Assembly: GCF_030063335.1 (NCBI RefSeq)
Contig: NZ_JASISW010000010.1
Span: forward strand, 1 to 64,000
Reading direction: 5' to 3'
DNA: 64,000 nucleotides
Source: Rhodococcus sp. G-MC3
GTDB lineage: Bacteria > Actinomycetota > Actinomycetes > Mycobacteriales > Mycobacteriaceae
Within the stretch, counting starts at the first letter, position 1; every line of letters begins with the position of its first letter. Made by a program: the position numbers and the translations under genes. Under the pieces are notes generated by a model, which was given only the letters and a program-made list of their open reading frames with translations, was not told where the DNA came from and searched no databases. Below, in pieces: positions 1-59,020 of the stretch.

Positions 1-103
1 TGCATCTGCGAGATGCCCTTCGTAGTGGCCGAATCTTTCCCTAGACAAGATTGATTCTTTCACCACGACAGGGCATTTCGTATTCACAACTCGCGCTCAG
101 TTG

Positions 104-718
104 TCACTTCATCGGTGTATTCAGGTTTAGCTGTCCATATCTCTCATACATCGCGCACACCTTGTCCGAAATTTGTTGCGGAAGAGGGTATAACGCAAAC
201 TTTGGCATAGGCGCCAAGCCGTCAAGCTCAATAACCGGTATCGGAGAATGGAATTCGACAGTGCCAACCGGGCTCAGCTCTGTGGACAGGTCTATCGGGA
301 AGTCGGCGAGCTGTTGGGCGCCGACGTACACCCGAACCTTGACGCTGGCCCCCGCGACCCCACCTGTCATCAGTCGGGGTGTGTCGAACACAAATCGAAA
401 GAAGTCGAGCTCAGTGGGTGTATCCGCAATAGCGATGAGCTCTGCCATAGCCTCTTCGACCGCTGCTGAAGTGTGAAGCAGATCAATGTCCTGGCTGTAC
501 CGGGCGTCGGGGCGGCGGACTAACAACGACGCCCCTCCTTTGAGCATCCAACGACCTTCAGAGCTAGAGAAAACACGCGCAAGGAATCTCTGCAAGAAGA
601 ACTCGCGGCGTAGCTGTTCAATGGTGCGATTTCGCACGCCAGTTTGGTTCTTCAGCCGGTCCTTGAGAGAACGGCTAAAGGCGGCGGGATTCGTCGGCGT
701 CTTCCCAGCAGCGTTCAC
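104..718 (-). CDS. AbiEii-type nucleotidyltransferase toxin, C-terminally truncated
   Basis: This is the toxin half of a type IV (AbiE) toxin-antitoxin pair. Family members are cytoplasmic nucleotidyltransferases. The 204-residue product shows the expected core: an N-terminal FLQRFLARVF helix, then a WMLKGGASLL strand-turn and the YSQDIDLL segment holding the paired acidic residues of the nucleotidyltransferase fold. A DKVCAMYERYG segment follows near the C terminus. In relatives this last segment leads into an RDLVDL-type helical domain. Here the frame stops about 10 residues later, and neither of the other minus frames down to base 1 restores that domain, so the gene looks cut short. Start is a GTG at 716-718 with a weak ribosome site. 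It lies 72 bp downstream of the antitoxin gene and probably shares its transcript. Family assignment is fairly sure; toxicity of this short form is doubtful. Confidence 0.72.
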   Translation of the reverse strand: MNAAGKTPTNPAAFSRSLKDRLKNQTGVRNRTIEQLRREFFLQRFLARVFSSSEGRWMLKGGASLLVRRPDARYSQDIDLLHTSAAVEEAMAELIAIADTPTELDFFRFVFDTPRLMTGGVAGASVKVRVYVGAQQLADFPIDLSTELSPVGTVEFHSPIPVIELDGLAPMPKFALYPLPQQISDKVCAMYERYGQLNLNTPMK

Positions 719-45560: not shown

Positions 45561-47552
45561 ATGAAACGAGCGCTCGGGACGGCTGTCGACGGCCTACTGG
45601 CCGCTCTCGTCGCCGTAGTAGTTGCGACGGTCGGGTTGTACACATTTTCGTTGGTCGAATGGCCTGCGTTCAACTCGTCCAACGTCACTCGTGCATTGAC
45701 GACGCTCGGCCAGGTCGTCTGCGCTGTCGCGTTCGCTGCGGCGATCGTGCTGTACCGCCGCGGCACCCGCGAGTGGTTGGCCAAAGTCCTCACGTGGGCC
45801 GGCCTGTCGGGCTTCGTCACAGTCACTCTCGGAATGCCGTTGGCCGCAACGAAGCTCTACCTGTTCGGCATCTCTGTCGACCAGGAATTTCGCACCGAAT
45901 ACCTCACGCGGCTCACCGACTCTGCTGCGCTGCGAGACATGACCTACCAGGACATTCCGCCGTTCTACCCCGCCGGATGGTTCTGGATCGGCGGTCGCGT
46001 CGCGAACCTGGTCGGCATGGACGGCTGGGAAGTGTTCAAGCCCTTCGCAATCGGATTCCTCGCCGTCACCGCCGTCCTGGCCTTCACACTGTGGAAGCAA
46101 CTGATCCGAACCGACTTGGCCGTGGCCGTCAGCGCGGTCACCACGGCAATAGTTCTCGCCTACGCTTCCCCGGAGGCCTACAGCGCCGTCATCGCCCTGC
46201 TCATCGCTCCGGCCTTTGTGCTGGCTTGGGGTGCGCTGAACCGGCCGGTATCGGCGTTTTCGGCCGCCCGCGCCGGCATGAATGGACCATCGCAACGGCT
46301 AGACGGCTCCAATGGTCCATTGATGCCAACCGGGGTGATGCCAACCGGGGTGACGCCAGAGCCGGGCAAGCAAAACTGGGGCTGGGGCGCGGTCATCGGC
46401 ACCGGCCTGTTCCTCGGACTCGCTGCGACGTTCTACACCCTCTACCTCGGCCTGGCTGCGTTCGCGATCACGCTGATGGCCGTCGTATCGGCGTTCCTCG
46501 GCATCAGAGCCGACAAGACCTGGCGAGCAGCCGTTCCAGTCGTGATTCGGCTCGCAGGAATTGCGGTCATCTCCGGACTCGTCGCTCTGACCGTGTGGTT
46601 GCCGTATCTGATCGACGCGCTCACCGGCACTCCGTCTACGTCCGGCACCGCGCTGCATTATCTGCCCGAATCGGGCGCGACACTGCCGTTCCCGATGTTC
46701 GAATTCTCTCTGCTCGGCGCGCTGTGTATGGCCGGGACACTGTGGATCGCGGTGCGCGCAGCAACGTCGCGGCGGGCACAGGCCCTCGGTGTCGGCGTTC
46801 TCGCCATCTACCTGTGGACGCTGCTGTCGATGGCAGCCACCGTCGCCGGCACCACTCTGCTGTCCTTCCGGCTCGAATCTGTGCTGATCGTATTGCTCGG
46901 GGCAGCAGGCGTTTTCGGTTTTCTCGAAGGATCCAAAGCGATCTATCAGGCCGTGAACGAGCCACCGAAGTTCAAGATTGCGGCGGTTGTCGTGGCGGCA
47001 GTCGGCGCCCTGTCGTTCGCACAGAACATTCCGCAGGTACTGCAGTCCGAGATCACCGTCGCCTACTCCGACACGGACGGTGACGGCATCCGCGCCGACA
47101 AGCGACCACCGAGCGCGGTGTCGTACTACGGCGACATTGACCGAGCACTCACCGACCAGCTGGGCAAGCCCAGGGACGAGACCGTGGTGCTCACTGCCGA
47201 CACATCGTTCCTCAGTTACTACCCGTACTTCGGTTTCCAGGCACTGACGTCGCACTACGCGAACCCGCTCGCACAGTTCGACCGTCGAGCAGCCGCCATC
47301 GAGGACTGGTCCACATTGGAGACGCCCGACGAACTCGTCGCCGCACTCGACAGCAGCGAATGGCGAGCACCCGACGCCTTCCTGTTTCGCCGGAGCGCCG
47401 ACGGTTACACGCTGCGCCTTGCCGAGGACGTGTATCCGAACGATCCGAACGTGCGCCGCTACAGCGTGGAATTCGACGAGACGCTTTTCGAGGATCCGCG
47501 ATTCCAGGTCACCGATATCGGACCGTTTGCGCTGGTCACCCGCATCTCTTAG
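45561..47552 (+). CDS. aftA: AftA: priming arabinofuranosyltransferase, with inserted palindromic element
   Basis: A 663-residue GT-C enzyme that puts the first arabinofuranose onto galactan. The N-terminal half has about 11 membrane helices; SVDQEFRTEYLTRLTDSAAL after helix 4 carries the acidic catalytic residue, followed by MTYQDIPPFYPAGWFWIGGR. The C-terminal third (SDTDGDGIRADKRPPSAVSY onward) is extracytoplasmic. Between two membrane helices, residues about 238-268 (MNGPSQRLDGSNGPLMPTGV and on) are encoded by a copy of the palindromic repeat found elsewhere in this window plus a doubled 15-bp unit, a stretch foreign to the protein. The gene abuts dprE2. Confidence 0.95.
   Translation: MKRALGTAVDGLLAALVAVVVATVGLYTFSLVEWPAFNSSNVTRALTTLGQVVCAVAFAAAIVLYRRGTREWLAKVLTWAGLSGFVTVTLGMPLAATKLYLFGISVDQEFRTEYLTRLTDSAALRDMTYQDIPPFYPAGWFWIGGRVANLVGMDGWEVFKPFAIGFLAVTAVLAFTLWKQLIRTDLAVAVSAVTTAIVLAYASPEAYSAVIALLIAPAFVLAWGALNRPVSAFSAARAGMNGPSQRLDGSNGPLMPTGVMPTGVTPEPGKQNWGWGAVIGTGLFLGLAATFYTLYLGLAAFAITLMAVVSAFLGIRADKTWRAAVPVVIRLAGIAVISGLVALTVWLPYLIDALTGTPSTSGTALHYLPESGATLPFPMFEFSLLGALCMAGTLWIAVRAATSRRAQALGVGVLAIYLWTLLSMAATVAGTTLLSFRLESVLIVLLGAAGVFGFLEGSKAIYQAVNEPPKFKIAAVVVAAVGALSFAQNIPQVLQSEITVAYSDTDGDGIRADKRPPSAVSYYGDIDRALTDQLGKPRDETVVLTADTSFLSYYPYFGFQALTSHYANPLAQFDRRAAAIEDWSTLETPDELVAALDSSEWRAPDAFLFRRSADGYTLRLAEDVYPNDPNVRRYSVEFDETLFEDPRFQVTDIGPFALVTRIS
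46275..46351. repeat. Palindromic element family 1 inside aftA, with 15-bp duplication
   Basis: GGCATGAATGGACCAT (46275-46290) pairs with ATGGTCCATTGATGCC (46312-46327) with one mismatch, enclosing CGCAACGGCTAGACGGCTCCA. It is followed by a duplicated 15-mer, GATGCCAACCGGGGT (46322-46336 and 46337-46351). The whole insert keeps the aftA frame. Four further copies of the palindrome lie in noncoding DNA at 56,040-57,450. Confidence 0.9.
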
Positions 47553-47587: not shown

Positions 47588-49369
47588 ATGACAAACACCG
47601 ACCAGACTGTGCTGGAGCAGCCACGGACGGCTCTGTCGTCGAAAATCGAGGCCGCTTCGGCGCGTCTTCACCGCGGCGATGTCGCGGCCGCCGGGGCGTT
47701 CACCCTCGTCGCGTTCTTCGTGATGCACCGACAGTGGCGCAACCTCGGCAGCGGCTACCTGTACAACAGCGGCCAAGACCAGGCCATGTGGGAATGGTTC
47801 TTCTCCGTTGCCGCTCATTCGGTGGCACATCTCGAGAACCCGATGTCGAGCGATCTGCAGAATTACCCGCTCGGTGTAAACCTGATGGCCAACACTGCGA
47901 TGTTCGGGCTGTCGATTCCTCTTGCACCCGTCACGTTGCTCTTCGGCCCGACAGTAACCTGGGCGATCACGCTCACCGCAGGCCTCGCCGGCACCGCCTA
48001 TGCCTGGTACTGGCTGTTCTCGCGGACAGTCGGCGGCTCACGGGCAGCATCTGCGATCGGCGGCGCACTGTGCGGCTTCGCCCCCGGCATGATCAGTCAC
48101 GCGAACGGGCACCCCAACTTCGTCGTCCTGTTCATGCTCCCCGTCATCGCAGCCCTGGTCGTCCGCATCGCGAAGGGTGACGGCACGAAAAAGACGACCG
48201 TCGCGCTCGGTCTGGTCGTCGCACTGCAGATCATGCTCGGTGAGGAACCGTTGCTGATCTTCGCGATCGCTTTCGCACTGTTCGCCCTCGTCTACTACGC
48301 CGGTAAGCCCCGCGAGATCTGGCCGGTGATCACCCGCGTCGCAGCGCCGATCCCGCTCGCAGCCGTCATCGCGCTCGCACTCGTCGCATATCCCCTGTAC
48401 TGGCAGTTCTTCGGGCCTCAGAGCTACTCGTTCCTCGAACACGGCAACATGGGCAACGACGCCAAAGCGCTGTTCCAGTTCCCATCGCAGTCCATCGGCG
48501 GGGTCGCGACGCCCGGCCAGAACGTTCGTATCAACGCAACAGAAGAGAACGCCTACTTTGGGTGGCCCGTCCTCGTACTGAGCGGTGTGGCCGCACTGTG
48601 GCTGTGGCGCGAGTCCCGGGCCCGCGCAGCGGCGGTAACCGTCGTCGTGATGAGTGTTCTCTCTCTTGGTTCCGAACTGTTCCTCGGCAAGAACGATGCC
48701 GAAGTCGAACTGCCATGGCAGTGGCTCGCCGACAAGCCTCTCGTCGAATCCGTTCTTGAAACTCGCTTCGCGCTCGCGGCAATTCCACTCATTGCACTGC
48801 TGCTGGTACTTGCCACGGACAAGGCGTTCAGGCGCGGCGTGCGGCCGGTACCGGCACTCTGGTGCGCCGCGTTGGCACTGGCGCTCGTACCGTTGATTCC
48901 GACGCCACTCACCGCCGTCTCGAGAACACCCACGCCGTCGTTCTTCGCGAGTGGCGAGTGGAAGAACTATGTCGACGACGGATCGGTCGTCACCGTTCCC
49001 CTGCCCCGCCCCGAAGATGCACGGCCTCTCAAATGGCAGATCGATGCGGGCATGAGCTTTCCCCTTGCAGGCGGCTACTTCGTCGGGCCGAGCGATTCCG
49101 AGGACAAGAAAGCCAAGTACGGCGCGGTCGACCGCCCGACGGCCCTGCTACTCGGGTCGGTACTGAACTCGGGAACAGTCCCGGAAATCACCGCGGATCA
49201 GAGGACCAACGCACGCGAGGACCTGCAGTTCTGGGGCGCCGACGTGGTCGTCCTCCAACCCGGTCGCAACAGCGTTGCCCTACGGGACACAGTCGAAAAT
49301 CTGCTGGACATCGACGCCGAATATCACGACGGCGTCTGGATCTGGGACGTGCGCGCACTCGTGCGCTGA
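47588..49369 (+). CDS. Polytopic GT-C-like membrane protein between aftA and emb
   Basis: A 593-residue protein with about 11 helices and a C-terminal extracytoplasmic domain (after about residue 450; EWKNYVDDGSVVTVPLPRPE). The first loop, GYLYNSGQDQAMWEWFFSVA, with an Asp soon after helix 1, is placed like GT-C catalytic loops, and the next loop reads NYPLGVNLMANTAMFGLSIP. The likely role is a polyprenyl-phosphate-dependent glycosyltransferase acting on arabinan or a related glycan. Mycobacteria have no gene between aftA and embC, so this is an added component. Direct repeats TAACGTTCAC lie just upstream of the ATG. Confidence 0.75.
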   Translation: MTNTDQTVLEQPRTALSSKIEAASARLHRGDVAAAGAFTLVAFFVMHRQWRNLGSGYLYNSGQDQAMWEWFFSVAAHSVAHLENPMSSDLQNYPLGVNLMANTAMFGLSIPLAPVTLLFGPTVTWAITLTAGLAGTAYAWYWLFSRTVGGSRAASAIGGALCGFAPGMISHANGHPNFVVLFMLPVIAALVVRIAKGDGTKKTTVALGLVVALQIMLGEEPLLIFAIAFALFALVYYAGKPREIWPVITRVAAPIPLAAVIALALVAYPLYWQFFGPQSYSFLEHGNMGNDAKALFQFPSQSIGGVATPGQNVRINATEENAYFGWPVLVLSGVAALWLWRESRARAAAVTVVVMSVLSLGSELFLGKNDAEVELPWQWLADKPLVESVLETRFALAAIPLIALLLVLATDKAFRRGVRPVPALWCAALALALVPLIPTPLTAVSRTPTPSFFASGEWKNYVDDGSVVTVPLPRPEDARPLKWQIDAGMSFPLAGGYFVGPSDSEDKKAKYGAVDRPTALLLGSVLNSGTVPEITADQRTNAREDLQFWGADVVVLQPGRNSVALRDTVENLLDIDAEYHDGVWIWDVRALVR

Positions 49370-49406
49370 GCGCTACCGACATTGCCGTGCCCTAGCATCG
49401 AGAACC

Positions 49407-52400
49407 GTGTCCACTGTCGTAACCACCGAACCACGCCCGACGTCCCGCAACTCGTCATCACGCATCTCCGCGGGAATCGTCGCCATCGTTTCCGGTGTAA
49501 TCGCCGTTCTCGCCGCGATACTGACCCCGCTGTTGCCGGTCACGCAGGATTCGACGTCGATCAATTGGCCGCAGAACGGGACGCTGAATTCGGTGGAAGC
49601 GCCGCTGGTGTCGTACGCGCCGCTGTCCTTCGACGCGTCGATAGCGTGCCCGGTGATCGAAACTGCGGCGCCAGAGACACTCCTGCTCTCCACCACCGCA
49701 CCCGGCGCGCCCGACGCGCAGGGCGTCGGACTCGTCGTCACCCGTACCGATAGTGGCCTGCAAGCGGTTCTGCGCGAGCGTGTGCTTCTGACGCTGACCG
49801 ACGCCCAGCTTGCAGACTGCTCATCGGTGGACATCAGCTCGACCGCCACCGGATCGACGGCGTCGGCCGTTGGTACCGAGGCGACCGGCGAAATCGGCGG
49901 CGACTCGCGCCCACAGACCGTCGGCGTCTTCACCGAACTTCAGGGCGCCGTTCCAGCAGGCCTGAGTGTCGACGTCCAGATCGACTCGCGATTCTCGTCG
50001 ACCCCGACCGTACTCAAAAAGCTCGCGATGATCGCCGCGGTCATCTTCACGATCATCTCGCTGATCGCCCTGCACCGTCTCGATCTGCGCGACGGCAGGC
50101 GCGGACGCCGCTTCTTCCCAACGCACTGGCTACGGGTCACCGTCGTCGACGGGGTGGTTGCCGGAGTTCTGCTGGTGTGGCACTTCATCGGTGCGAACAC
50201 GTCCGACGACGGTTATCTGCTGACCATGGCTCGGGTATCCGAGCACGCCGGTTACATGGCGAACTACTACCGCTGGTTCGGTGTGCCCGAAGCGCCGTTC
50301 GGTATGCCGTATTACGACATGCTCGCGGCCTTCGCGAAGGTGTCAACGGCCAGCCCGTGGATGAGGCTCCCTGCCCTGATCGCGGCGCTGCTGTGTTGGG
50401 CCGTGATCAGCCGTGAGGTGATTCCGCGTCTCGGCCGCGCCGTGCGCTCGGACAAAGTCGCGATCTGGACTGCGGGGCTCATGTTCCTTGCATTCTGGCT
50501 CCCGTACGACAACGGACTTCGACCCGAACCCATCATCGCGCTCGGCGCGCTGCTGACATGGTGCTCCATCGAGCGCGCAATAGCGACAGGACGATTGCTC
50601 CCCGCTGCCATAGCCGTGCTGATCGCTGCGTTCTCGCTCGCCGCCGGACCCACCGGACTGATCTGCGTCGCTGCCCTCCTCGCCGGCGGACGGCCACTCG
50701 TTCGCGTCGTCCTCGCGCGGGCGCGCGCCGTGGGTTTCATGGCCGTTCTCGCGCCGATCTTCGCCTCGGGCGTCGTGATTCTCGCCGCTGTGTTCGCCGA
50801 CCAAACCCTCTCGACGGTCCTCGAGGCAACCCGTGCGCGCGCCGCCGTCGGGCCGAACGTCCCATGGTTCGAAGAACGCACGCGCTGGGACTCGCTCATG
50901 GAGATCACTCCCGACGGGTCGCTTGCTCGCCGCTTCGCGGTGTTCGTGATGCTGCTGTGCGTCATCACCACGGTCGTGGTGATGCTGCGTCGTAATGGCC
51001 GCATTCCGGGGGTCGCGCTCGGTCCGTCGCGACGCATCGTCGGCATCGTCGTCGGCGCGCTTGCGCTGATGATGTTCACCCCGACCAAATGGACCCACCA
51101 CTTCGGCGTCTACGCAGGCCTGGCCGCGTCACTTGCCGCCGTCGCCGCAATTGCCGTCGCGTCGGCCACTCGCGACAATCCGCGCAACCGCACCCTGTTC
51201 ACGGCGGCGGTGTTGTTTCTCACCGCGCTCGCCTTCACTGGATCCAACGGCTGGTGGTACGTCTCCAGCTACGGCATCCCGTGGTTCGACAAGCCGCCGA
51301 TGATTCTCGGCAAGGGCATCTCGACGGCCTTCCTCGGACTCACCGTGCTCACCCTTCTCTTCGCCGGCTGGCAGCACCTGCGCGCCCCCTACCGGGCATC
51401 GAATCGATCGGCGCGCTTCGGCGTATCGGCGCTGACAGTGGTCGCCGCGTTCGTGGTGCTGTTCGAGGTTCTCTCGTTCGCCAAGGGTGCCCTCGCCCAG
51501 TACCCCGCATACTCGGTGGCGCGCTCGAATCTCAACGCCTTGGCCGGGAATTCCTGCTCGCTAGCCAATGATGTTCTGGTGGAACAGGATCCCAACGACG
51601 CCATGTTGACCCCGATCGACTCGTCGGTCGCGGACTCGCTCGAAGGACCAGGCACCACCGGCTTCACCCCCGACGGCATCCCGGACGATCTGACCGCCGA
51701 CGCCGAAGACGTGTCGCAGGAGAGCACACGCGGATTCAGCGACGACTCCGACACCGATCAGCAGACGCCGAAATCGGCCGGATCGTCCGGAACCGAAGGC
51801 GGCACGACCGCCGGCGCCGGCATCAACGCAAGCTCGGTCGCATTGCCATTCGGCCTCGACCCATCGCGCACCCCCGTCCTCGGCAGCTACGGCGCCGACA
51901 CGTCGGAGCCCGCGACACTCACCACACAGTGGTTCTCGCTGCCCGCCACTCCTGATGGCGACTTCCTCGCGATCAGCGCGGCCGGGCGCATCCGGTCGGT
52001 CGACTCCGACGGCATCGTCGCGTCGGGGCAGCCGCTCGAAGTCGAATATGCCGCGGGGGACCAGGTTCTCGGCCGGGTCACACCGATCGATATCGGTCCG
52101 CAACCGTCGTGGCGCAATCTCCGCGTGCCGCTGTCGGACATTCCTACTGGCGTCGACCGCATTCGACTGGTCGCAACGGATTCCGATATCTCGCCCGACC
52201 AGTGGCTCGCGGTGACACCGCCCCGCATACCGCGCACTGTTCCACTCGTCGACGTCATCGGTCCCGACGTTCCGGTGATGCTCGACTGGACCGTCGCGCT
52301 CGGCTTCCCCTGCCAGCGTCCGTTCAACCACAAGGACGGCGTTGCTGAAGTACCCGAGTACCGGATTCTTCCGGATCGAAGCGGTGCTACAGCTCACAGT

Positions 52401-52619
52401 CCGGTGATGGATGCGTTCGGCGGCGGTCCCCTCGGCTGGCAGCAGCTCATCCTGTCGGCAGCGGTCATCCCGACCTACCTTCGCGACGACCTCGACCGCG
52501 ACTGGGGCTCCCTCGAGCGTTTCAGCCCGCTCGACCCATCCGCGACCCCGGCCGATCTGACGGTCGACACCGTCACTCGCAGCGGATGGAAGACGGAGGG
52601 TCCGATCCGGGTTGGTTGA
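49407..52619 (+). CDS. emb: Arabinosyltransferase, Emb family (first copy)
   Basis: A 1,070-residue GT-C arabinosyltransferase using decaprenyl-phosphoryl-arabinose. After the first membrane helix comes a lectin-like extracytoplasmic domain (residues 45-210), then the multi-helix core with the catalytic loop NTSDDGYLLTMARVSEHAGY and NYYRWFGVPEAPFGMPYYDM, where ethambutol-resistance changes cluster in mycobacteria. A C-terminal carbohydrate-binding domain follows (GFPCQRPFNHKDGVAEVPEY). Between core and C-domain lies an acidic low-complexity linker (SDDSDTDQQTPKSAGSSGTE). GTG at 49407 is chosen from family fit. Whether it is EmbC-like or EmbA/B-like needs a tree. Confidence 0.95.
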   Translation: MSTVVTTEPRPTSRNSSSRISAGIVAIVSGVIAVLAAILTPLLPVTQDSTSINWPQNGTLNSVEAPLVSYAPLSFDASIACPVIETAAPETLLLSTTAPGAPDAQGVGLVVTRTDSGLQAVLRERVLLTLTDAQLADCSSVDISSTATGSTASAVGTEATGEIGGDSRPQTVGVFTELQGAVPAGLSVDVQIDSRFSSTPTVLKKLAMIAAVIFTIISLIALHRLDLRDGRRGRRFFPTHWLRVTVVDGVVAGVLLVWHFIGANTSDDGYLLTMARVSEHAGYMANYYRWFGVPEAPFGMPYYDMLAAFAKVSTASPWMRLPALIAALLCWAVISREVIPRLGRAVRSDKVAIWTAGLMFLAFWLPYDNGLRPEPIIALGALLTWCSIERAIATGRLLPAAIAVLIAAFSLAAGPTGLICVAALLAGGRPLVRVVLARARAVGFMAVLAPIFASGVVILAAVFADQTLSTVLEATRARAAVGPNVPWFEERTRWDSLMEITPDGSLARRFAVFVMLLCVITTVVVMLRRNGRIPGVALGPSRRIVGIVVGALALMMFTPTKWTHHFGVYAGLAASLAAVAAIAVASATRDNPRNRTLFTAAVLFLTALAFTGSNGWWYVSSYGIPWFDKPPMILGKGISTAFLGLTVLTLLFAGWQHLRAPYRASNRSARFGVSALTVVAAFVVLFEVLSFAKGALAQYPAYSVARSNLNALAGNSCSLANDVLVEQDPNDAMLTPIDSSVADSLEGPGTTGFTPDGIPDDLTADAEDVSQESTRGFSDDSDTDQQTPKSAGSSGTEGGTTAGAGINASSVALPFGLDPSRTPVLGSYGADTSEPATLTTQWFSLPATPDGDFLAISAAGRIRSVDSDGIVASGQPLEVEYAAGDQVLGRVTPIDIGPQPSWRNLRVPLSDIPTGVDRIRLVATDSDISPDQWLAVTPPRIPRTVPLVDVIGPDVPVMLDWTVALGFPCQRPFNHKDGVAEVPEYRILPDRSGATAHSPVMDAFGGGPLGWQQLILSAAVIPTYLRDDLDRDWGSLERFSPLDPSATPADLTVDTVTRSGWKTEGPIRVG

Positions 52620-52706: not shown

Positions 52707-55700
52707 GTGCCCGACGCCGTGACAGATACCTCCGCCGTGCCCTCCGCTCCGTTGCCGAAGGGTTCAGCGGTCGATCTGCGCTCCCAGGTGCGTACGACGC
52801 GGCTGGTTGCCATCGTCACCGGCCTGCTCGGTGCCATCCTCGCGATCCTGACGCCGTTCCTGCCGGTGGTGCAGACCACCTCGACCATCCAGTGGCCTGA
52901 CGCGGGGTCCATTGCCGATATAGACGCGCCGCTTGTCTCGCAGGCACCTCTGGACTTCAGCGCAACGGTTCCTTGCTCTGCCGTCGATCGTCTGCCGGCG
53001 TCTGGAGGCCTGCTACTAGCGACAGCACCTGCCCAGGGTGAAGGAGCAGCGCTCAACAGCCTGTTCGTGCGGGTGAGCGCAGGATCGGTCGATGTCCTCG
53101 ACCGCAACGTCGTCGTCGCGACGGCACCGCGTGCGGACGTCCAGAGCGCCCCGTGCGGCTCCATCGAGATCACCTCGAACATCGACGCAACCACCGCCGA
53201 ATTCACCGGGCTGTTCGACGACGAGGGCAACCCGCGCAGCGGCAGACTCGACGGCGATCTACGTCCCCAGGTCGTCGGACTCTTCACCGACATCGACGGT
53301 GCCGCGCCCGCTGGGATGTCCGTCACCATCGACGTCGATTCCCGCTTCTCGTCCAGCCCCACGATCCTCAAGCTGCTCGCGATGATCCTCGCGGCCGTCT
53401 GCACCATCATCGCGATGGGCGCGCTCGGGCGGCTCGACGGTATCGATGGCCGCCGCCATCGCCGTTTCTTCCCTTCGCACTGGTGGAAGTTCACCGGCGT
53501 CGACGTCACCGTCATCGGCGTCCTCGTCGGCTGGCACTTCGTCGGAGCGAACACCTCCGACGACGGCTATCTGTTGACGATGGCCCGTGCCGCCGAGAAG
53601 TCCGGCTACATGGCGAACTACTTCCGCTGGTTCGGGGTACCCGAGGCACCGTTCGGCTGGTACTACGACGTGCTTGCACTGTTTGCCAAGGTCTCGACCG
53701 CGAGCCCGTGGATGCGGCTCCCCGCACTGATAGCGGCGGTCCTGTGCTGGATGGTCATCAGCCGCGAGGTCGTCCCCCGCCTCGGGCGCGCTGTCCGAAA
53801 GTCGAACGTCGCCCTCTGGACCGGCGGACTGGTGTTCCTCGCCTTCTGGCTCCCGTACAACAACGGTCTTCGCCCGGAGCCCATCGTCGCCGTCGGCGCG
53901 CTGCTGACGTGGTGCTCGATCGAGCGCGCCATCGCGACCGGACGACTACTCCCTGCCGCCTCCGCGTTCTTGATCGGAGCATTCACCCTCGCCGCCGCAC
54001 CGACCGGACTGATGTGTGTGGCTGCTCTCCTCGCAGGTGCCCGGCCGATGGCCCGCATCGTCGTTCGCCGTCACCGGCTCGTCGGGACGCTGCCACTGCT
54101 GGCGCCACTGGCAGCGGCAGGCTTCCTCGTTCTCGTGGTGGTCTTCGCAGACCAGACGTTTGCGACGGTCATCGAATCCACTCGCGTGCGTACGGCCATC
54201 GGCCCCAGCGAGGCCTGGTACCAAGACTTCCTGCGCTACTACTACCTGTTCGTCCAGACTGTCGACGGCTCCGTCGCGCGCCGCTTTGCATTCTTGGTGA
54301 TGCTGCTGTGCCTGTTCTCGACGCTCTTCATTCTCCTGCGACGCCGGCGAGTCCCCGGCATCGCGAACGGTCCGGCCTGGCGCCTCATCGGCGTCGTATT
54401 CGGCACCGTTTTCTTCATGATGTTCAATCCGACCAAGTGGACTCACCACTTCGGGTCGTATGCGGGTATCGCGGGCAGCCTCGCGGCGTTGACGGCCGTC
54501 GCGATCTCGGCGAGTGCCCTTCGCTCGCGCCGGAACCGAACAATATTCCTAGCGGGACTGGCGTTCGTTCTGGCACTGTCGTTCTCGGGGATCAACGGCT
54601 ACTGGTACGTCTCGAGCTACGGAGTTCCGTGGTTCGACAAGACGGTGTCGCTGAGCGGCCACCAGTCCAACACGGTGTTCCTCATTCTGTTCGCCGCCGC
54701 ACTCGCGCTCGCCGCCTGGCAGTACCTTCGAGAGGGATACGCACCACCCCAACCACGTGCCGGTACCGAACGCGGCAGGCGCATAAAGAAATTCGCCGCC
54801 GCGCCGCTGACCGTCATCGCAGGCTTGATGGTGTTGTTCGAGGTCCTCTCGTTGGTCAAGGGCGCGGTGACTCAGTATCCGGCGTACTCCCTGGCTCGCT
54901 CGAACATAGAATCACTGGTCGGCAACACCTGCGGACTCGCCAACGACGTTCTGGTGGAATCGAATCCCAACTCCGGTGTCCTGAACCCGATACCCGCGAC
55001 GTTCGACCCCGAGACCGGACCACTTGGCGGCGAGAGCCCGTCCAACTTCACCCCCAACGGCATTTCCACAGACCTCAGCGCCGACGCCGTGGAAGTCAAA
55101 CCAGGACAAGGCAATACCGATCAGCAGAGCGTCGGGCCCGCATTCGAGGAAGGACAGAGTTCGGGTACGGGAGGCGGCATCGGCGATCGCGGAGTCAACG
55201 GCTCCACCGCGGCACTTCCCTTCGGACTCGACCCGGCCACCACGCCGGTGCTGGGCTCCTACCAGCCGGGCATCCAGGAACCTGCACAAGCGACATCGAG
55301 TTGGTACTCCCTTCCGGAACGCTCGGACAACACGCCGCTCATAGTCGTCTCCGCGGCAGGACGCATTCTGTCGATCGACGACACCGGAGCCACGACGTAC
55401 GGTCAGTCGCTGCTCGTCGAGTACGGCACCCGGCAGCCCAACGGAGCCGTCGACGTCAAGGGGACCTACCTCCCCCGAGATATCGGCCCCGCACCGTCGT
55501 GGCGCAACCTCCGCATTCCGATCGCGGATCTACCCGAGGACGCAGACGCGGTCCGTCTCGTCGCAAACGATCCGAACCTCACCGGCGACCAGTGGTTCGC
55601 GTTCACACCGCCGCGCGTTCCGCAGCTCGAGAATTTGAACTCTCTCATCGGCAGCGAGCAGCCTGTTCTGCTGGACTGGGCTGTCGGACTTCAGTTCCCG

Positions 55701-56018
55701 TGCCAAAGGCCGTTCGACCACCAGTACGGCGTCGCCGAGGTACCGGGATACCGCATCCTTCCCGACCGTCCGTTGGCCGTCAGCTCCACCGACACCTGGC
55801 AGTCCGGTGACAACGGCGGCCCGCTCGGATGGGCCGAACTCCTCGCCAAACCCATGACGGTTCCGACGTACCTGAACCGCGACTGGGCGCGAGACTGGGG
55901 CTCCCTCGAACGGTACGAGCAGTACTACCCCGACGCTGTGCCTGCCACCATCGAGACCGGCGAAGCCACCAGGTCGGGCTTCTGGACGCCCGGAAACTTG
56001 AGGGTGTTCGACAAGTAG
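52707..56018 (+). CDS. emb: Arabinosyltransferase, Emb family (second copy)
   Basis: A 1,103-residue paralogue of the preceding gene with the same domains. The catalytic loop is NTSDDGYLLTMARAAEKSGY followed by NYFRWFGVPEAPFGWYYDVL, the latter closer to mycobacterial EmbB. The C-terminal module has GLQFPCQRPFDHQYGVAEVP. A Gly/Ser/Asn linker (GQSSGTGGGIGDRGVNGSTA) again precedes it. Two emb genes occur here, against three in mycobacteria and one in corynebacteria. GTG at 52707 follows a TAACAT box. It is separated by 87 bp from the first copy and followed by palindromic repeats that may terminate transcription. Confidence 0.95.
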   Translation: MPDAVTDTSAVPSAPLPKGSAVDLRSQVRTTRLVAIVTGLLGAILAILTPFLPVVQTTSTIQWPDAGSIADIDAPLVSQAPLDFSATVPCSAVDRLPASGGLLLATAPAQGEGAALNSLFVRVSAGSVDVLDRNVVVATAPRADVQSAPCGSIEITSNIDATTAEFTGLFDDEGNPRSGRLDGDLRPQVVGLFTDIDGAAPAGMSVTIDVDSRFSSSPTILKLLAMILAAVCTIIAMGALGRLDGIDGRRHRRFFPSHWWKFTGVDVTVIGVLVGWHFVGANTSDDGYLLTMARAAEKSGYMANYFRWFGVPEAPFGWYYDVLALFAKVSTASPWMRLPALIAAVLCWMVISREVVPRLGRAVRKSNVALWTGGLVFLAFWLPYNNGLRPEPIVAVGALLTWCSIERAIATGRLLPAASAFLIGAFTLAAAPTGLMCVAALLAGARPMARIVVRRHRLVGTLPLLAPLAAAGFLVLVVVFADQTFATVIESTRVRTAIGPSEAWYQDFLRYYYLFVQTVDGSVARRFAFLVMLLCLFSTLFILLRRRRVPGIANGPAWRLIGVVFGTVFFMMFNPTKWTHHFGSYAGIAGSLAALTAVAISASALRSRRNRTIFLAGLAFVLALSFSGINGYWYVSSYGVPWFDKTVSLSGHQSNTVFLILFAAALALAAWQYLREGYAPPQPRAGTERGRRIKKFAAAPLTVIAGLMVLFEVLSLVKGAVTQYPAYSLARSNIESLVGNTCGLANDVLVESNPNSGVLNPIPATFDPETGPLGGESPSNFTPNGISTDLSADAVEVKPGQGNTDQQSVGPAFEEGQSSGTGGGIGDRGVNGSTAALPFGLDPATTPVLGSYQPGIQEPAQATSSWYSLPERSDNTPLIVVSAAGRILSIDDTGATTYGQSLLVEYGTRQPNGAVDVKGTYLPRDIGPAPSWRNLRIPIADLPEDADAVRLVANDPNLTGDQWFAFTPPRVPQLENLNSLIGSEQPVLLDWAVGLQFPCQRPFDHQYGVAEVPGYRILPDRPLAVSSTDTWQSGDNGGPLGWAELLAKPMTVPTYLNRDWARDWGSLERYEQYYPDAVPATIETGEATRSGFWTPGNLRVFDK

Positions 56019-56334
56019 GTTTTTGCTCCCGGGCCCTTTTCGGCATGAATGGACCATCGCAACGGTTAGACGGTTGTGGTGGTCCATTCATGTTGGTGGA
56101 CTTGCGTATTCGGTCGGCATGAATGGGCCCTTGTAGCCGTCTAGCCGTTGCGATGGCCCATTGATGCCAAAGCAGTAGGGACCGGACCAGCCTCTAGCAT
56201 CCGAATCCGACACATTCGGCGGATCGATCGCCCATCCGAACGAGTTGTACACAGCCGGAACACCTATCAACAGGTGAGCTTGCGATCCCCGAAAACGAGA
56301 CTTTCGTGTCGGTACAAGTTCGGACAGTGCGCTC
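56019..56334. repeat. Intergenic region with two palindromic elements (family 1)
   Basis: Copy 2 (about 56041-56092) reads CGGCATGAATGGACCATCGC with closing arm TGGTCCATTCATG. Copy 3 (about 56115-56168) is in opposite orientation, GGCATGAATGGGCCC with arm GGGCCATCGCAACGGCTAGA when read on the minus strand. No gene is seen in these 316 bp. Copies 2 and 3 follow the emb stop and may end its transcription; the last 160 bp should hold the promoter of the next gene. Confidence 0.85.
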
Positions 56335-57300
56335 ATGAAGAAACCGACATGGGCTCGCTCGCCCCAACAGCTACAGGATCTCAGCACGCACGGCGTGGCC
56401 ACTCGCGCCCAGCTTCGCGAAGCAAAGGTCTCCGATAGTTCGCTCACCGCACGCACTGCGCCGGGCGGACCGTGGCAACGACTGCTTCCCGGTGTGTACC
56501 TGTTGCACAATGGATATCCGTCGCCCCTGCAACGATCGATTGCTGCGCTCGCCTACGGCGGCCCCAAGTCCAGCATCACCGGACAGGTAGGACTGGGAGC
56601 GCACGGATACGGCACCGACGGGACTTCCAACGAGGTGCATGTCCTGATCCCGGCAGGTATTCGTCGGGCATCGAAGTCGTTCGTTCGAGTCGAACGGACA
56701 TGGCGTATGCCCGACGCTATCGAGAAGGGCAGCCTCCGCGTCGCGCCGCTCGTCCGGAGCCTTGCGGACACCACACGAGCGGTCAAAACCGACGAGCATT
56801 GCGTACGGCTGATCGCTGAAGTGGTCCAGCGAGGTGGCGCAACGCTCGATGACATTGCGCTCGAACTCGCCGAGGGTCCGCGCAGACACGGCGCAATCAG
56901 CAAAAGGGTTGTCGGAGAACTCCGCGACGATGCCCATTCGGTGGCCGAGCTGCAAGCACAGAAACTGTACGCCGACAGCGGTCTTCCGCCGATGATGCAC
57001 AATTGTGCGATCTATACAGCGTCGGGCAAGCTGCTGTGCATCACCGACAATCTGCTCGACGAAGTCGGATTCTGCTGGGAGATCGACTCATTGGCGTATC
57101 ACTTGACGCCTGCCGATCACGCCAAAACCATCGCGCGACGGACTGAAATGCAGGGAAACGGCCTGATCGTCCTGTCTCACCTACCCCGGGACATCCGGGA
57201 CAATCCCGCCAAGGTGTTGGCAGATCTGAGGTCTCACTACCAACTTGCACTGAACCGGCCGCGGCCATCTCTCACCGTTCGCCCGTGGAAAGATCTCTGA
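56335..57300 (+). CDS. AbiEi-like winged-helix/nuclease-fold protein, orphan
   Basis: A 321-residue protein. The N terminus is an AbiEi-type winged helix (RAQLREAKVSDSSLTARTAP, then GPWQRLLPGVYLLHNGYP), followed by a SSITGQVGLGAHGYG segment and VAPLVRSLADTTRAVKTDEH. The C-terminal part (CAIYTASGKLLCITDNLLDE, then GFCWEIDSLAYHL) resembles the DUF559/restriction-endonuclease-like fold commonly fused in actinobacterial relatives. No toxin gene is adjacent. Its role is unknown; such orphans are frequent in Rhodococcus and Mycobacterium. Confidence 0.72.
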   Translation: MKKPTWARSPQQLQDLSTHGVATRAQLREAKVSDSSLTARTAPGGPWQRLLPGVYLLHNGYPSPLQRSIAALAYGGPKSSITGQVGLGAHGYGTDGTSNEVHVLIPAGIRRASKSFVRVERTWRMPDAIEKGSLRVAPLVRSLADTTRAVKTDEHCVRLIAEVVQRGGATLDDIALELAEGPRRHGAISKRVVGELRDDAHSVAELQAQKLYADSGLPPMMHNCAIYTASGKLLCITDNLLDEVGFCWEIDSLAYHLTPADHAKTIARRTEMQGNGLIVLSHLPRDIRDNPAKVLADLRSHYQLALNRPRPSLTVRPWKDL

Positions 57301-57325
57301 GCGATTTTCGTGACCGGCCGCCCTC

Positions 57326-57449
57326 GCATGAATGGACCATGGCAACCGTCTAACCTTTGCAATGGTCCATTCATGCCGGCCGAGTACCGAAGGCCGCCAA
57401 CATGAATGGACCATTACAACCGGCTAACCGTTGCGGTGGTCCATTCATG
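57326..57449. repeat. Two palindromic elements (family 1) before accD4 end
   Basis: Copy 4 (about 57326-57376) has arms GCATGAATGGACCAT and ATGGTCCATTCATGC around GGCAACCGTCTAACCTTTGCA. Copy 5 (57401-57449) has CATGAATGGACCAT and GTGGTCCATTCATG around TACAACCGGCTAACCGTTGCG. They lie between convergent gene ends and could terminate both. Confidence 0.88.
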
Positions 57450-57475
57450 CGGAAAGGAGGGGACAAAGCAACCGT

Positions 57476-59020
57476 CTAAATCGGAAGAAGGTGATGCTTC
57501 CGCGGATTCTTGAAAACCTCTTTGTCCTCGAGCAACTTCAGCGCCTTGCGGAGCTCGAGTCGGGTGCTCGACGGCTCGATGACGGCGTCGATGTAACCAC
57601 GCTCGGCAGCTACCCACGGAGTCGCCACGTGTTCGTTGTAGAAGTTGATCAGCTGCTGGCGCACTGCAGGCGCATTGTCACCGGCGGCAGCCATCTGCTT
57701 CCGCCCGATGATGTTGACGGCACCCTCCGCACCCATGACGGCGATTCGAGCGGTCGGCCAGGCGAAGTTGATGTCGGCGCCGAGTTGCTTGCAGCCCATC
57801 ACCGCGTAGCCACCGCCGTAAGCCTTGCGGACGACGACGGTGATCTTGGGGACCGAAGCCTCGATGTACGAGAACAAGAATCGCCCGCCGCGCTTGATGA
57901 CTCCGACCTTCTCCTGATCGACACCGGGTAGGAATCCGGGTGTGTCGACGAGGAAGATCAGCGGGATGTTGTAGGCGTCGCAGATCCGGATGAAGCGGGC
58001 GGCCTTGTCCGAGCCGTCGGCGTCGAGCGCGCCCGAGAGGTACATCGGCTGATTGGCGACAATTCCGACCGACTTGCCGTCGACCCGGCTCAGTCCGGTG
58101 ATGACGTTGTGCGCGATTCCCGACGACATCTCGTGGAACTCACCGTCGTCGAACAACCTGAGGATGATGTCGTGCATGTCGTAACCGGCGTTGTCGGCGT
58201 CGGGCATGATCTTGTCCAGCAGAAGATCGGACTCGGTCACCTCGGGCTCGAGACCTGGATTCACGACGGGCGGATTTTCCTGGCAACTCGACGGCATGTA
58301 GCTGAGGTAGTTGCGCACCCAATCGAAAGCGGCCTTATCGTCGGCAGCGACGTGGTGCACGTTGCCGTACTCGGCCTGCTTGCGTGCGCTACCGAGGTCG
58401 TCGAGGCTGACCTCTTCACCGGTGACGGACTTGATGATGTCCGGACCGGTGACGAACATGTACGCCTCTTCGGTAGCGACCACGACGTCGGTGTTGATCG
58501 GGGCGTAGACAGCACCGCCCGCGCACTTACCCAGGATCACCGAGATCTGAGGACACATACCCGACAGCGGCTCGTGCCGACGCCCGAGCTCGGCGTACCA
58601 GGCGAGCGAGGTCACAGCATCCTGCACGCGCGCACCACCGGAATCGTTGATGCCGATCACCGGGCAGCCGACCTTGATGGCGAAGTCCATGATGCCGGCG
58701 ACCTTGCGGCCGAACATCTCGCCGACAGTTCCGCCGAAGACGGTTTGGTCGTGCGAGAAGACGGCAACGGGGCGACCGTCGACGGTTCCGTGTCCAGTGA
58801 CGACGCCGTCACTGTAGAGCGCAGTCGGATCGTTCGGAGCCTTCACCAAGGCACCGATCTCGACGAAGCTACCCGGGTCGAGCAGCATGTCGATGCGTTG
58901 CCGCGCACTGGCAATGCCCTTCTTGGCGCGCTTGGCGACGCCGACCTCACCTGCCGGTTCCTTGGCGAGTTCGAGATTGGCCCGAAGTTCGGCCAACTTT
59001 TCGGCGGTGGTACCAGTCAA
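57476..59020 (-). CDS. accD4: AccD4: long-chain acyl-CoA carboxylase carboxyltransferase subunit
   Basis: A 514-residue beta subunit of the acyl-CoA carboxylase that makes carboxylated (alpha) meromycolate-partner acyl-CoA for Pks13. The N-terminal crotonase-like domain has [40 protein letters not shown] and [17 protein letters not shown] (oxyanion hole). The C-terminal domain has [20 protein letters not shown] and [20 protein letters not shown], the second oxyanion hole. Downstream of pks13 by 3 bp, as in mycobacteria and corynebacteria, so they form one operon. Confidence 0.96.

What the first reader, a model, noticed from the sequence alone, without database searches (positions are those of the whole stretch)
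46275..46351. Palindromic repeat inserted in frame into the essential-type gene aftA
Seen: a 53-bp palindrome, nearly identical to noncoding copies at 56 kb and 57 kb, plus a doubled 15-mer, lies inside aftA and is translated as an extra peptide of about 28 residues in a loop between membrane helices. Known: in-frame palindromic elements within genes are described in Rickettsia, but are rare elsewhere. This suggests a mobile REP-like element able to create protein insertions in Rhodococcus.
Basis: partly seen in the sequence, partly recalled or inferred. Interest (0 to 1): 0.85.

Follow-up and report, generated by a model that had tools for sequence, protein, structure and literature searches.

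The report
Gene-end hairpin translated inside aftA
A 53-base hairpin repeat that in this Rhodococcus relative sits mostly just after the ends of genes also lies, in frame, inside the cell-wall gene aftA, and in most of the related genomes compared both kinds of copy carry the same local sequence version, so the copies are likely rewritten together as species diverge.

Summary
A 53-bp palindrome (46275-46327) followed by a doubled 15-mer lies in frame in aftA, in a low-confidence coil between two predicted helices; solved AftA (8if8) lacks it. It is a real insertion: 18 of 37 genus genomes carry such an insert, 19 do not.

It does not look like a freshly jumping element. At least 49 copies were found; only the aftA copy lies well inside a gene (one more overlaps the start of a weak ORF). 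Most others lie 3' of genes, often between convergent genes and as doublets 74 bp apart. 23 of 38 intergenic copies have a copy at the same gene end in sampled relatives. Yet sequence does not follow position: own copies are 82% alike, same-place copies in other-dialect genomes on average 53-75%. Lineages have 'dialects', and the aftA copy speaks the dialect of its genome's emb/accD gene-end copies in 14 of 16 genomes. In R. kyotonense KB10 an almost private dialect (14 copies) includes its aftA copy.

I read this as a REP-like 3'-end RNA hairpin family (no Y1/RAYT transposase in 36 of 37 genomes) that evolves in concert, likely by gene conversion, with one ancient in-frame member in a permissive loop. 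Function and homogenising mechanism are inferred.

The parts
45561..47552 (+). aftA, galactan 5-O-arabinofuranosyltransferase, 663 aa, host of the in-frame element
   Evidence: Pfam PF12250 and PF12249; homologues named galactan 5-O-arabinofuranosyltransferase; solved relative 8if8
46275..46327 (+). 53-bp palindromic element, in-gene copy, read as GMNGPSQRLDGSNGPLMP
   Evidence: covariance model R1, 71.1 bits; R1's alignment A3 includes this copy
46321..46350 (+). 15-mer TGATGCCAACCGGGG twice in tandem; first unit overlaps the palindrome end; on one side only
   Evidence: sequence
56042..56094 (+). first element of the doublet 3' of the emb-type gene that ends at 56018 (23 bp after its stop)
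56116..56168 (+). second element of that doublet, centre 74 bp from the first
57325..57377 (+). first element of the doublet between two convergent genes, 24 bp after the stop at 57300
57399..57451 (-). second element of that doublet, 24 bp from the stop of the accD-type gene 57476-59020(-)
   Evidence: carboxyl transferase domain
52707..56018 (+). emb-type arabinosyltransferase gene whose 3' end carries the 56-kb doublet; the same gene end was read in 20 relatives
   Evidence: long direct repeats with the neighbouring ORF 49275-52619, which was the one scanned with Pfam

Best explanation
The 53-bp palindrome in aftA is an in-frame copy of a family of about 50 palindromes that lie mostly just after stop codons in this genome, and it is likely kept alike to them by gene conversion between copies. 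Shown: the family, its sharp 53-bp unit, its place 3' of genes and between convergent genes, its doublets, its conserved positions in relatives, and sequence dialects that differ between lineages at the same positions and that the aftA copy mostly shares. Supported but indirect: the copies act as RNA hairpins at transcript 3' ends (covarying stems; G-U rather than A-C mismatches on the transcribed strand). Inferred: they terminate, insulate or protect the 3' ends of convergent transcripts; an element entered the aftA loop long ago, once or a few times; it is tolerated because the loop between two membrane helices is disordered; later changes of dialect rewrote it in place. The source of homogenisation (ectopic gene conversion, or selection by a co-evolving reader) is untested.
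For: At least 49 copies in the genome (94 strand-wise matches at 49 places, 150 of 2814 candidates scored), 1 well inside a gene. 34 of 38 own intergenic pattern copies lie under 60 bp from a stop codon. Gaps with an element are convergent in 20 of 30, gaps without in 24 of 156, p 3e-8. Information content falls sharply outside 53 bp. Positions: 23 of 38 have a copy at the same gene end in a sampled relative; own paralogues 0.82 alike, same-place copies in G006 0.61 (13 comparisons), G010 0.64 (8), G008 0.69 (14), against 0.61, 0.62 and 0.67 for any pair. Dialect match of aftA and emb/accD 3'-end copies in 14 of 16 genomes; dialect CATCGATGG: 14 copies in G007 including its aftA copy, 2 in G006, 0 in 35 others. 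In all 17 aftA loops read the best-pairing 53-bp window starts in the same reading frame, whatever the dialect. Stem covariation in 74 copies: 17 of 22 pairs with changes on both sides, score 0.290 against 0.144 in shuffles, 0 of 500. G-U 112 against A-C 70 on the sense strand, but 28:30 and 61:65 where no strand can be assigned. Insert 231-272 has pLDDT under 50 and is coil between predicted helices 206-226 and 275-291.
Against: Independent insertions of each dialect into the same loop are not excluded; C-type inserts are scattered among empty relatives. In G027 and G016 the aftA copy (C type) does not match their emb 3'-end copies (30 and 29 of 53, ranks 12 and 13 of 21). The own region ranks first in only 7 of 16 comparisons; the match is at the level of the dialect. 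Same-place copies in G011 are 0.75 alike (4 comparisons) against 0.64 for any pair, so positional likeness is not wholly lost there. G007 and G006 each hold a few copies of other dialects. Spacers of own doublets are partly alike: 7 of 15 comparisons exceed the 95% point of shuffles, which would fit copying of whole doublets. No U-rich tract follows the elements (T 17%), so they are not classical intrinsic terminators. Counted per element, the G-U excess is weak (32:19, p 0.09). Orientation to the gene is not significantly biased (40:28, p 0.18).
Confidence: 0.55

Rival explanations
1. A non-autonomous mobile element (REP, REPIN or MITE) that still spreads, moved by a transposase in trans; dialects are successive waves that reinsert at the same favoured sites, the aftA loop among them.
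For: Extra copies inside aftA in some genomes: 3 in G006, 2 in G028 and G036. Doublets with preferred spacing (74 bp in 15, 64 bp in 5 of 33 spacings below 200 bp), like REPIN doublets, with partly similar spacers (7 of 15 comparisons above the shuffled 95% point). G004 and G026 lack the aftA insert and have 0 and 1 pattern copies.
Against: No Y1_Tnp in the own genome, 1 hit in 37 genus genomes; other transposase families were not searched. Positions are conserved between lineages whose AftA proteins share about 74-79% identity. Almost no copies inside genes, although two of three frames of the own-type element are open (read from the sequence).
Confidence: 0.22
2. A set of binding sites (DNA or RNA) for one factor; dialect changes follow changes in the factor's specificity and are driven by selection at each site, not by copying.
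For: Conserved outer columns and a centre of the kind TCTNN or its complement in most copies, with changing stems between them; fixed doublet spacing; genomes with practically no elements exist.
Against: About 50 sites, one inside a coding frame, would have to change step by step in parallel; no factor was identified. The AbiEi-like gene flanked by doublets (56335-57300) does not track the elements: G014 has elements but only one, 51% identical match at another place, and G035 has a match (46%) but no pattern copies.
Confidence: 0.2
3. Independent insertions into a permissive loop, with no in-place rewriting: each lineage's aftA took up a copy of its own current dialect.
For: The loop is variable in length in Nocardia too, without this element (up to 138 residues between the fixed motifs); C-type inserts are scattered among empty fascians-group genomes.
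Against: Same frame in all 17 loops read; a similar leader before the element in own (RPVSAFSAARA) and G010 (RPVSVYSA), although their dialects differ; the same dialect changes at non-coding orthologous sites need in-place rewriting anyway.
Confidence: 0.25

Closest known systems
REP sequences, above all the CGTC- and GTAG-tagged REPs of PMC3733652 (section 15 and passages of abstract and other sections read)
   Same: Short palindromes, mostly 3' of ORFs and between unidirectional and convergent ORFs, dimers, G-T pairing, termini giving stop codons, in-frame intragenic copies; [quoted passage not shown] different REPs lie about the same site of recB in two Xanthomonas species.
   Different: 53 bp instead of 20-40 bp; no GTAG or CGTC tag at an end; about 50 copies; dialects change in concert at conserved positions, mostly including the coding copy. 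The paper's main text does not name Rhodococcus or Actinobacteria.
REPINs with RAYT transposases (PMC3116915, PMC8049555; passages read)
   Same: Doublets with preferred spacing (71 and 110 bp in P. fluorescens SBW25; here 74 and 64 bp), vertical persistence.
   Different: No Y1_Tnp protein in 36 of 37 genomes; positions shared between species.
Rickettsia palindromic elements, RPE (PMC2229807, passages read; the primary paper PMC186582 is not held)
   Same: Palindromes read in frame inside protein genes, including conserved ones.
   Different: RPE are 105-146 bp and were seen in 19 reading frames; here one gene, and the coding copy mostly tracks the dialect of extragenic copies.
Dialects of the DNA uptake sequence in Neisseriaceae (PMC3630211; title and abstract start in a listing only)
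   Same: A repeated motif whose version differs between species, genome-wide.
   Different: Many short motifs for DNA uptake (their number and length are recalled: thousands of 12-mers) against about 50 long palindromes at gene ends.

Membership tests
REP (GTAG- or CGTC-tagged) | Palindrome of 20-40 bp with GTAG or CGTC at one end | tested here: not met
   Unit is 53 bp; consensus ends such as GCATG/CATGC, CGCTTG/CAAGCG and CGCGT/ACGCG; CGTC occurs only in the centre of some dialects
REP (GTAG- or CGTC-tagged) | Extragenic, mostly 3' of genes, convergent or unidirectional gaps | tested here: met
   20 of 30 element gaps convergent against 24 of 156; 4 of 152 divergent in 19 genomes; 111 of 152 under 60 bp from a stop codon
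REPIN/RAYT system | RAYT (Y1_Tnp) transposase in the genome | tested here: not met
   0 hits in own, 1 of 37 genus genomes (G031); the search rang in 5 of 14 control genomes
REPIN/RAYT system | Doublets at preferred spacing | tested here: met
   15 of 33 spacings under 200 bp are 74 bp, 5 are 64 bp; orthologous emb/accD sites recur among them; 6 own doublets are at 74 bp and 1 at 65 bp
Rickettsia-type coding palindrome (RPE) | Palindromic repeat translated in frame inside a conserved gene, absent from relatives | tested here: met
   18 of 37 genomes with insert, 19 without; frame 0 in all 17 read; translation itself was not tested
Rickettsia-type coding palindrome (RPE) | Many genes of one genome hit | tested here: not met
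   1 of 49 own copies well inside a gene; 1 of 70 pattern sites in six relatives inside a gene, near its 3' end, their aftA copies not being in this sample
MITE | Target-site duplication flanking the element | tested here: inconclusive
   The doubled 15-mer in aftA lies on one side only; non-coding filled and empty sites were not compared base by base
Intrinsic transcription terminator | Hairpin followed by a U-rich tract | tested here: not met
   10 nt after 75 sense-assigned elements: T 17%, G 43%
RNA hairpin at transcript 3' end | Structure conserved through compensatory change, with G-U tolerated on the transcribed strand | tested here: met
   0 of 500 shuffles reach the score; 6 of 500 reach the number of pairs with a change on both sides; 112:70; own genome 30:10; per-element count weak (32:19)

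The most novel reading that the evidence does not exclude
Rhodococcoides species carry a positionally fixed set of tens of gene-end hairpins whose sequence is rewritten in concert in each lineage, without a recognisable REP transposase, and this rewriting reaches in frame into the essential-type gene aftA, so that a cell-wall enzyme carries a peptide in the genome's own 'dialect'.
Probability: 0.48. Interest if true: 0.75.

Novelty: new variant of a known kind. Interest (0 to 1): 0.6.

Why it matters
Concerted evolution of dispersed 53-bp repeats at fixed places is not what REP biology predicts (copying to new sites). If it is conversion, it gives a bacterial system in which ectopic homogenisation of very short palindromes can be measured, with a protein-coding copy as an internal reporter. 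If it is selection by a reader, it points to an unknown factor at the 3' ends of actinobacterial transcripts. My searches listed no paper that, by title and abstract start, describes this family in Rhodococcus or concerted REP evolution; they cover open-access papers only, and the listings are capped.

Tried and rejected
Rejected: a gene break in G019. Its split aftA is an assembly gap with a run of N and what looks like a Nextera adapter (name recalled). Rejected: the AbiEi-like gene 56335-57300 as the agent that moves the elements, because its presence does not follow the elements. Rejected: a claim that elements are oriented by transcription (40:28, p 0.18; 26:22 without the emb/accD orthologues). 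Rejected: classical terminators (no U tract).

Left open: whether the doublet with its spacer is the unit. Spacers of the six own 74-bp doublets are 0.33-0.71 alike in 15 comparisons (shuffled mean 0.33, 95% point 0.476); 7 of 15 exceed that point, the two in the window most (0.71).

Led nowhere: patterns were one base too long by my error and their zeros mean nothing. Alignment A1 had wrong coordinates for two rows and was not used. Alignment A2 held 59 of the 74 sense-assigned copies listed; I repeated the count with all 74, with the same outcome. No Rfam family matched at the elements (gathering threshold). In one search one of the three 'inside' sites (L133) looks like a chance match.

Limits: genes were called by a simple codon-usage script trained on seven window genes, not by a standard caller. 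The patterns fix some outer letters, so part of the conservation there is by construction, and they favour TGAATG dialects (CATCGATGG copies needed), so counts are lower bounds. In one search only 150 of 2814 candidates were scored. The relatives' sites are those that one search listed before its list was cut (in G003, G006, G008-G011; 2 of 4 sites of G009 and one of G006 were not fetched, nor the 4 of G007), plus the emb/accD region of 20 genomes. In one search three of 18 aftA carriers were left out: G018 and G020 (no emb region fetched) and G016 (dropped by a length cut-off of mine; added, where it is a mismatch). One search compares only copies that match the patterns and takes the better of two where a doublet stands.

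Full report
The observation. The palindrome at 46275-46327 and the doubled 15-mer (46321-46350) are in the sequence, inside the aftA ORF 45561-47552. The arms occur far more often in the window than shuffles give (13 against 2.05). The insert lies between two predicted helices (206-226 and 275-291) in a stretch 231-272 with pLDDT below 50 (model mean 66.9). The solved AftA 8if8 matches residues 11-227 and 271-661, with its two matched pieces only 2 residues apart.

It is an insertion. AftA was found in all 37 genus genomes. Eighteen have palindromic inserts in this loop: 17 read, and G019, seen beside an assembly gap. Fifteen have short loops of 24-32 residues. The other four (G001, G002, G005, G035) were not parsed there, but their two matched pieces are only 3-6 bases apart. 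Inserts are of three types: A in G000, G032, G007, G019; B in G010, G018, G028, G030, G029, G020, G033, G036, G006, G021; C in G003, G011, G027, G016. G006 has three copies, G028 and G036 two. In the 17 loops read the best-pairing 53-bp window starts in the same reading frame.

The family. In the own genome a two-arm pattern finds 39 sites and a covariance model 49 places (150 of 2814 candidates were scored, so this is a lower bound). Of the 39, 36 are intergenic, 2 overlap a gene end by 3 bases and 1 is the aftA copy. Of the 10 added by the model, 9 are intergenic and 1 overlaps the start region of a weak ORF. In 70 pattern sites of six relatives, their aftA copies not included, 62 are intergenic, 7 overlap a gene end and 1 is inside a gene near its 3' end. 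Over 155 elements in 19 genomes, 90 of 152 non-internal ones lie between convergent genes and 4 between divergent ones; 111 of 152, and 34 of 38 in the own genome, lie under 60 bp from a stop codon or overlap it. Within the own loci, gaps with an element are convergent in 20 of 30 and gaps without in 24 of 156 (p 3e-8). Information content drops abruptly outside 53 bp. Doublets favour 74 bp between centres (15 of 33 spacings under 200 bp), then 64 bp (5) and 95 bp (3); their spacers are partly alike (7 of 15 own comparisons above the shuffled 95% point).

RNA level. In 74 sense-oriented copies (71 distinct rows) 17 of 22 stem pairs show changes on both sides; the covariation score is 0.290 against a shuffled mean of 0.144, reached in 0 of 500 shuffles, and sliding the partners destroys it (the same with a subset of 59). 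A DNA palindrome would do the same, so strand asymmetry matters. On the strand of the adjacent gene G-U mismatches exceed A-C ones 112 to 70 (p 0.002); where both or neither strand qualifies they are 28:30 and 61:65. In the own genome alone they are 30:10 (p 0.002), and without the emb/accD orthologues 65:40 (p 0.02). Counted per element the excess is weak (32:19, p 0.09). No U-rich tract follows.

Concerted dialects. The 3' end of the emb gene was read in 20 relatives. Seventeen carry palindromes there, often doublets, but in many of them in another sequence version: GGCATGAATGGACC in own and G032 (GGCATGAATGGGCC in G019), GGCATCGATGG in G007, CGCTTGAATGG or CGCTTCAATGG in G006, G010, G028 and others, GGGATCAATGT in G003 and G011, GCGTCAATGG in G027, G016, G031 and G008. 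G004, G026 and G014 show none of this family in the stretch read. Beyond this locus, 23 of 38 own intergenic copies have a copy at the same gene end in a sampled relative. Own copies are 0.82 alike among themselves; same-place copies are 0.61 (G006, 13 comparisons), 0.64 (G010, 8) and 0.69 (G008, 14) alike, and any pair of own and foreign copies is 0.61, 0.62 and 0.67 alike. Over all 16 other-dialect genomes the same-place means run from 0.53 (G003, 2 comparisons) to 0.75 (G011, 4), where any pair is 0.64, so some positional likeness remains there. With same-dialect genomes orthologues are the closer ones: 0.92 for G032 and 0.86 for G019, 4 comparisons each. So places are inherited while sequences are largely homogenised.

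The aftA copy takes part. In all 16 genomes compared its best match among the emb/accD 3' regions is a genome of its own dialect, and the genome's own region is of that dialect in 14 of 16; the exceptions are G027 and G016. For G027 two copies like its aftA type are listed elsewhere in the genome (C12:4209 and C12:462731). The own region itself ranks first in 7 of 16. The dialect CATCGATGGNCC has 14 copies in G007, its aftA copy among them, 2 in its sister G006 and none in the other 35. On a tree of AftA without the loop joined with the emb-type and AccD-type proteins (21 genomes) types A, B and C are each scattered: the fewest changes are 3, 4 and 3 (well-supported branches alone force 2 each), and none is one clade in any of 200 bootstrap trees. 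G007 (type A) and G006 (type B) are sisters (98/96).

What I make of it. A REP-like family of gene-end hairpins, kept at its places for a long time and rewritten in concert, has one in-frame member in a permissive loop of AftA. Ectopic gene conversion between copies is my preferred cause, since palindromes are prone to breaks (general knowledge; abstract starts listed), but selection by a co-evolving reader and renewed insertion at the same sites remain open. The tags and length of known REPs are not met, nor is the RAYT requirement, so I call it REP-like and not REP. In print, intragenic REPs are known in several species (PMC3733652, section 15 read), as are RPE in Rickettsia (PMC2229807, passages read). 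The listings showed no report of this family or of concerted dialects. On re-checking, adding G016 (a mismatch) and weighing the spacers again lowered the probability of the novel case from 0.50 to 0.48 and raised the mobile rival from 0.20 to 0.22.

Wider range. The same core pattern gives matches in 24 of 201 family genomes, 10 of them in this genus; some outside it have several copies (G076 12, G110 6, G138 9, G199 11). The copies listed for G076 and G110 often have a similar centre (TCAGA/TCTGA) and other arms. Single matches elsewhere may be chance.

Noticed in passing
window 56335-57300: An AbiEi-like gene (weak Pfam match, E 0.065, below the cut-off) flanked by element doublets evolves fast: 50-84% identical in yunnanense-group genomes where its neighbours are 89-98% identical.
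   Followed up: partly
G010:C1:4554194-4557802 (partly in L097): The same gene is split in G010 by about 2.6 kb, with an overlap of 8 residues between the two matched pieces, as an insertion sequence might leave it; a second match at 4699086-4700041 is also in two pieces.
   Followed up: no
L055:1690-1830 (G019): A run of N and adapter-like sequence breaks aftA in this assembly right beside the palindromic loop; perhaps such loops disturb assembly.
   Followed up: partly
G004 and G026: Two close genomes nested in the yunnanense group have no or one pattern copy genome-wide and no aftA insert: apparent loss of the family.
   Followed up: partly
L099, L102, L111 (G028, G033, G021): Arrays of near-identical elements at 67-107 bp spacing between the emb and accD genes, so local tandem duplication also occurs.
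   Followed up: no
window 8-124: Rfam match to the actinobacterial sRNA Ms_IGR-7, 49.2 bits against a cut-off of 45.
   Followed up: no
P0061, P0064, P0050 (Nocardia AftA): The same AftA loop is expanded in Nocardia without this element, in P0061 by tandem repeats, up to 138 residues between the fixed motifs.
   Followed up: no
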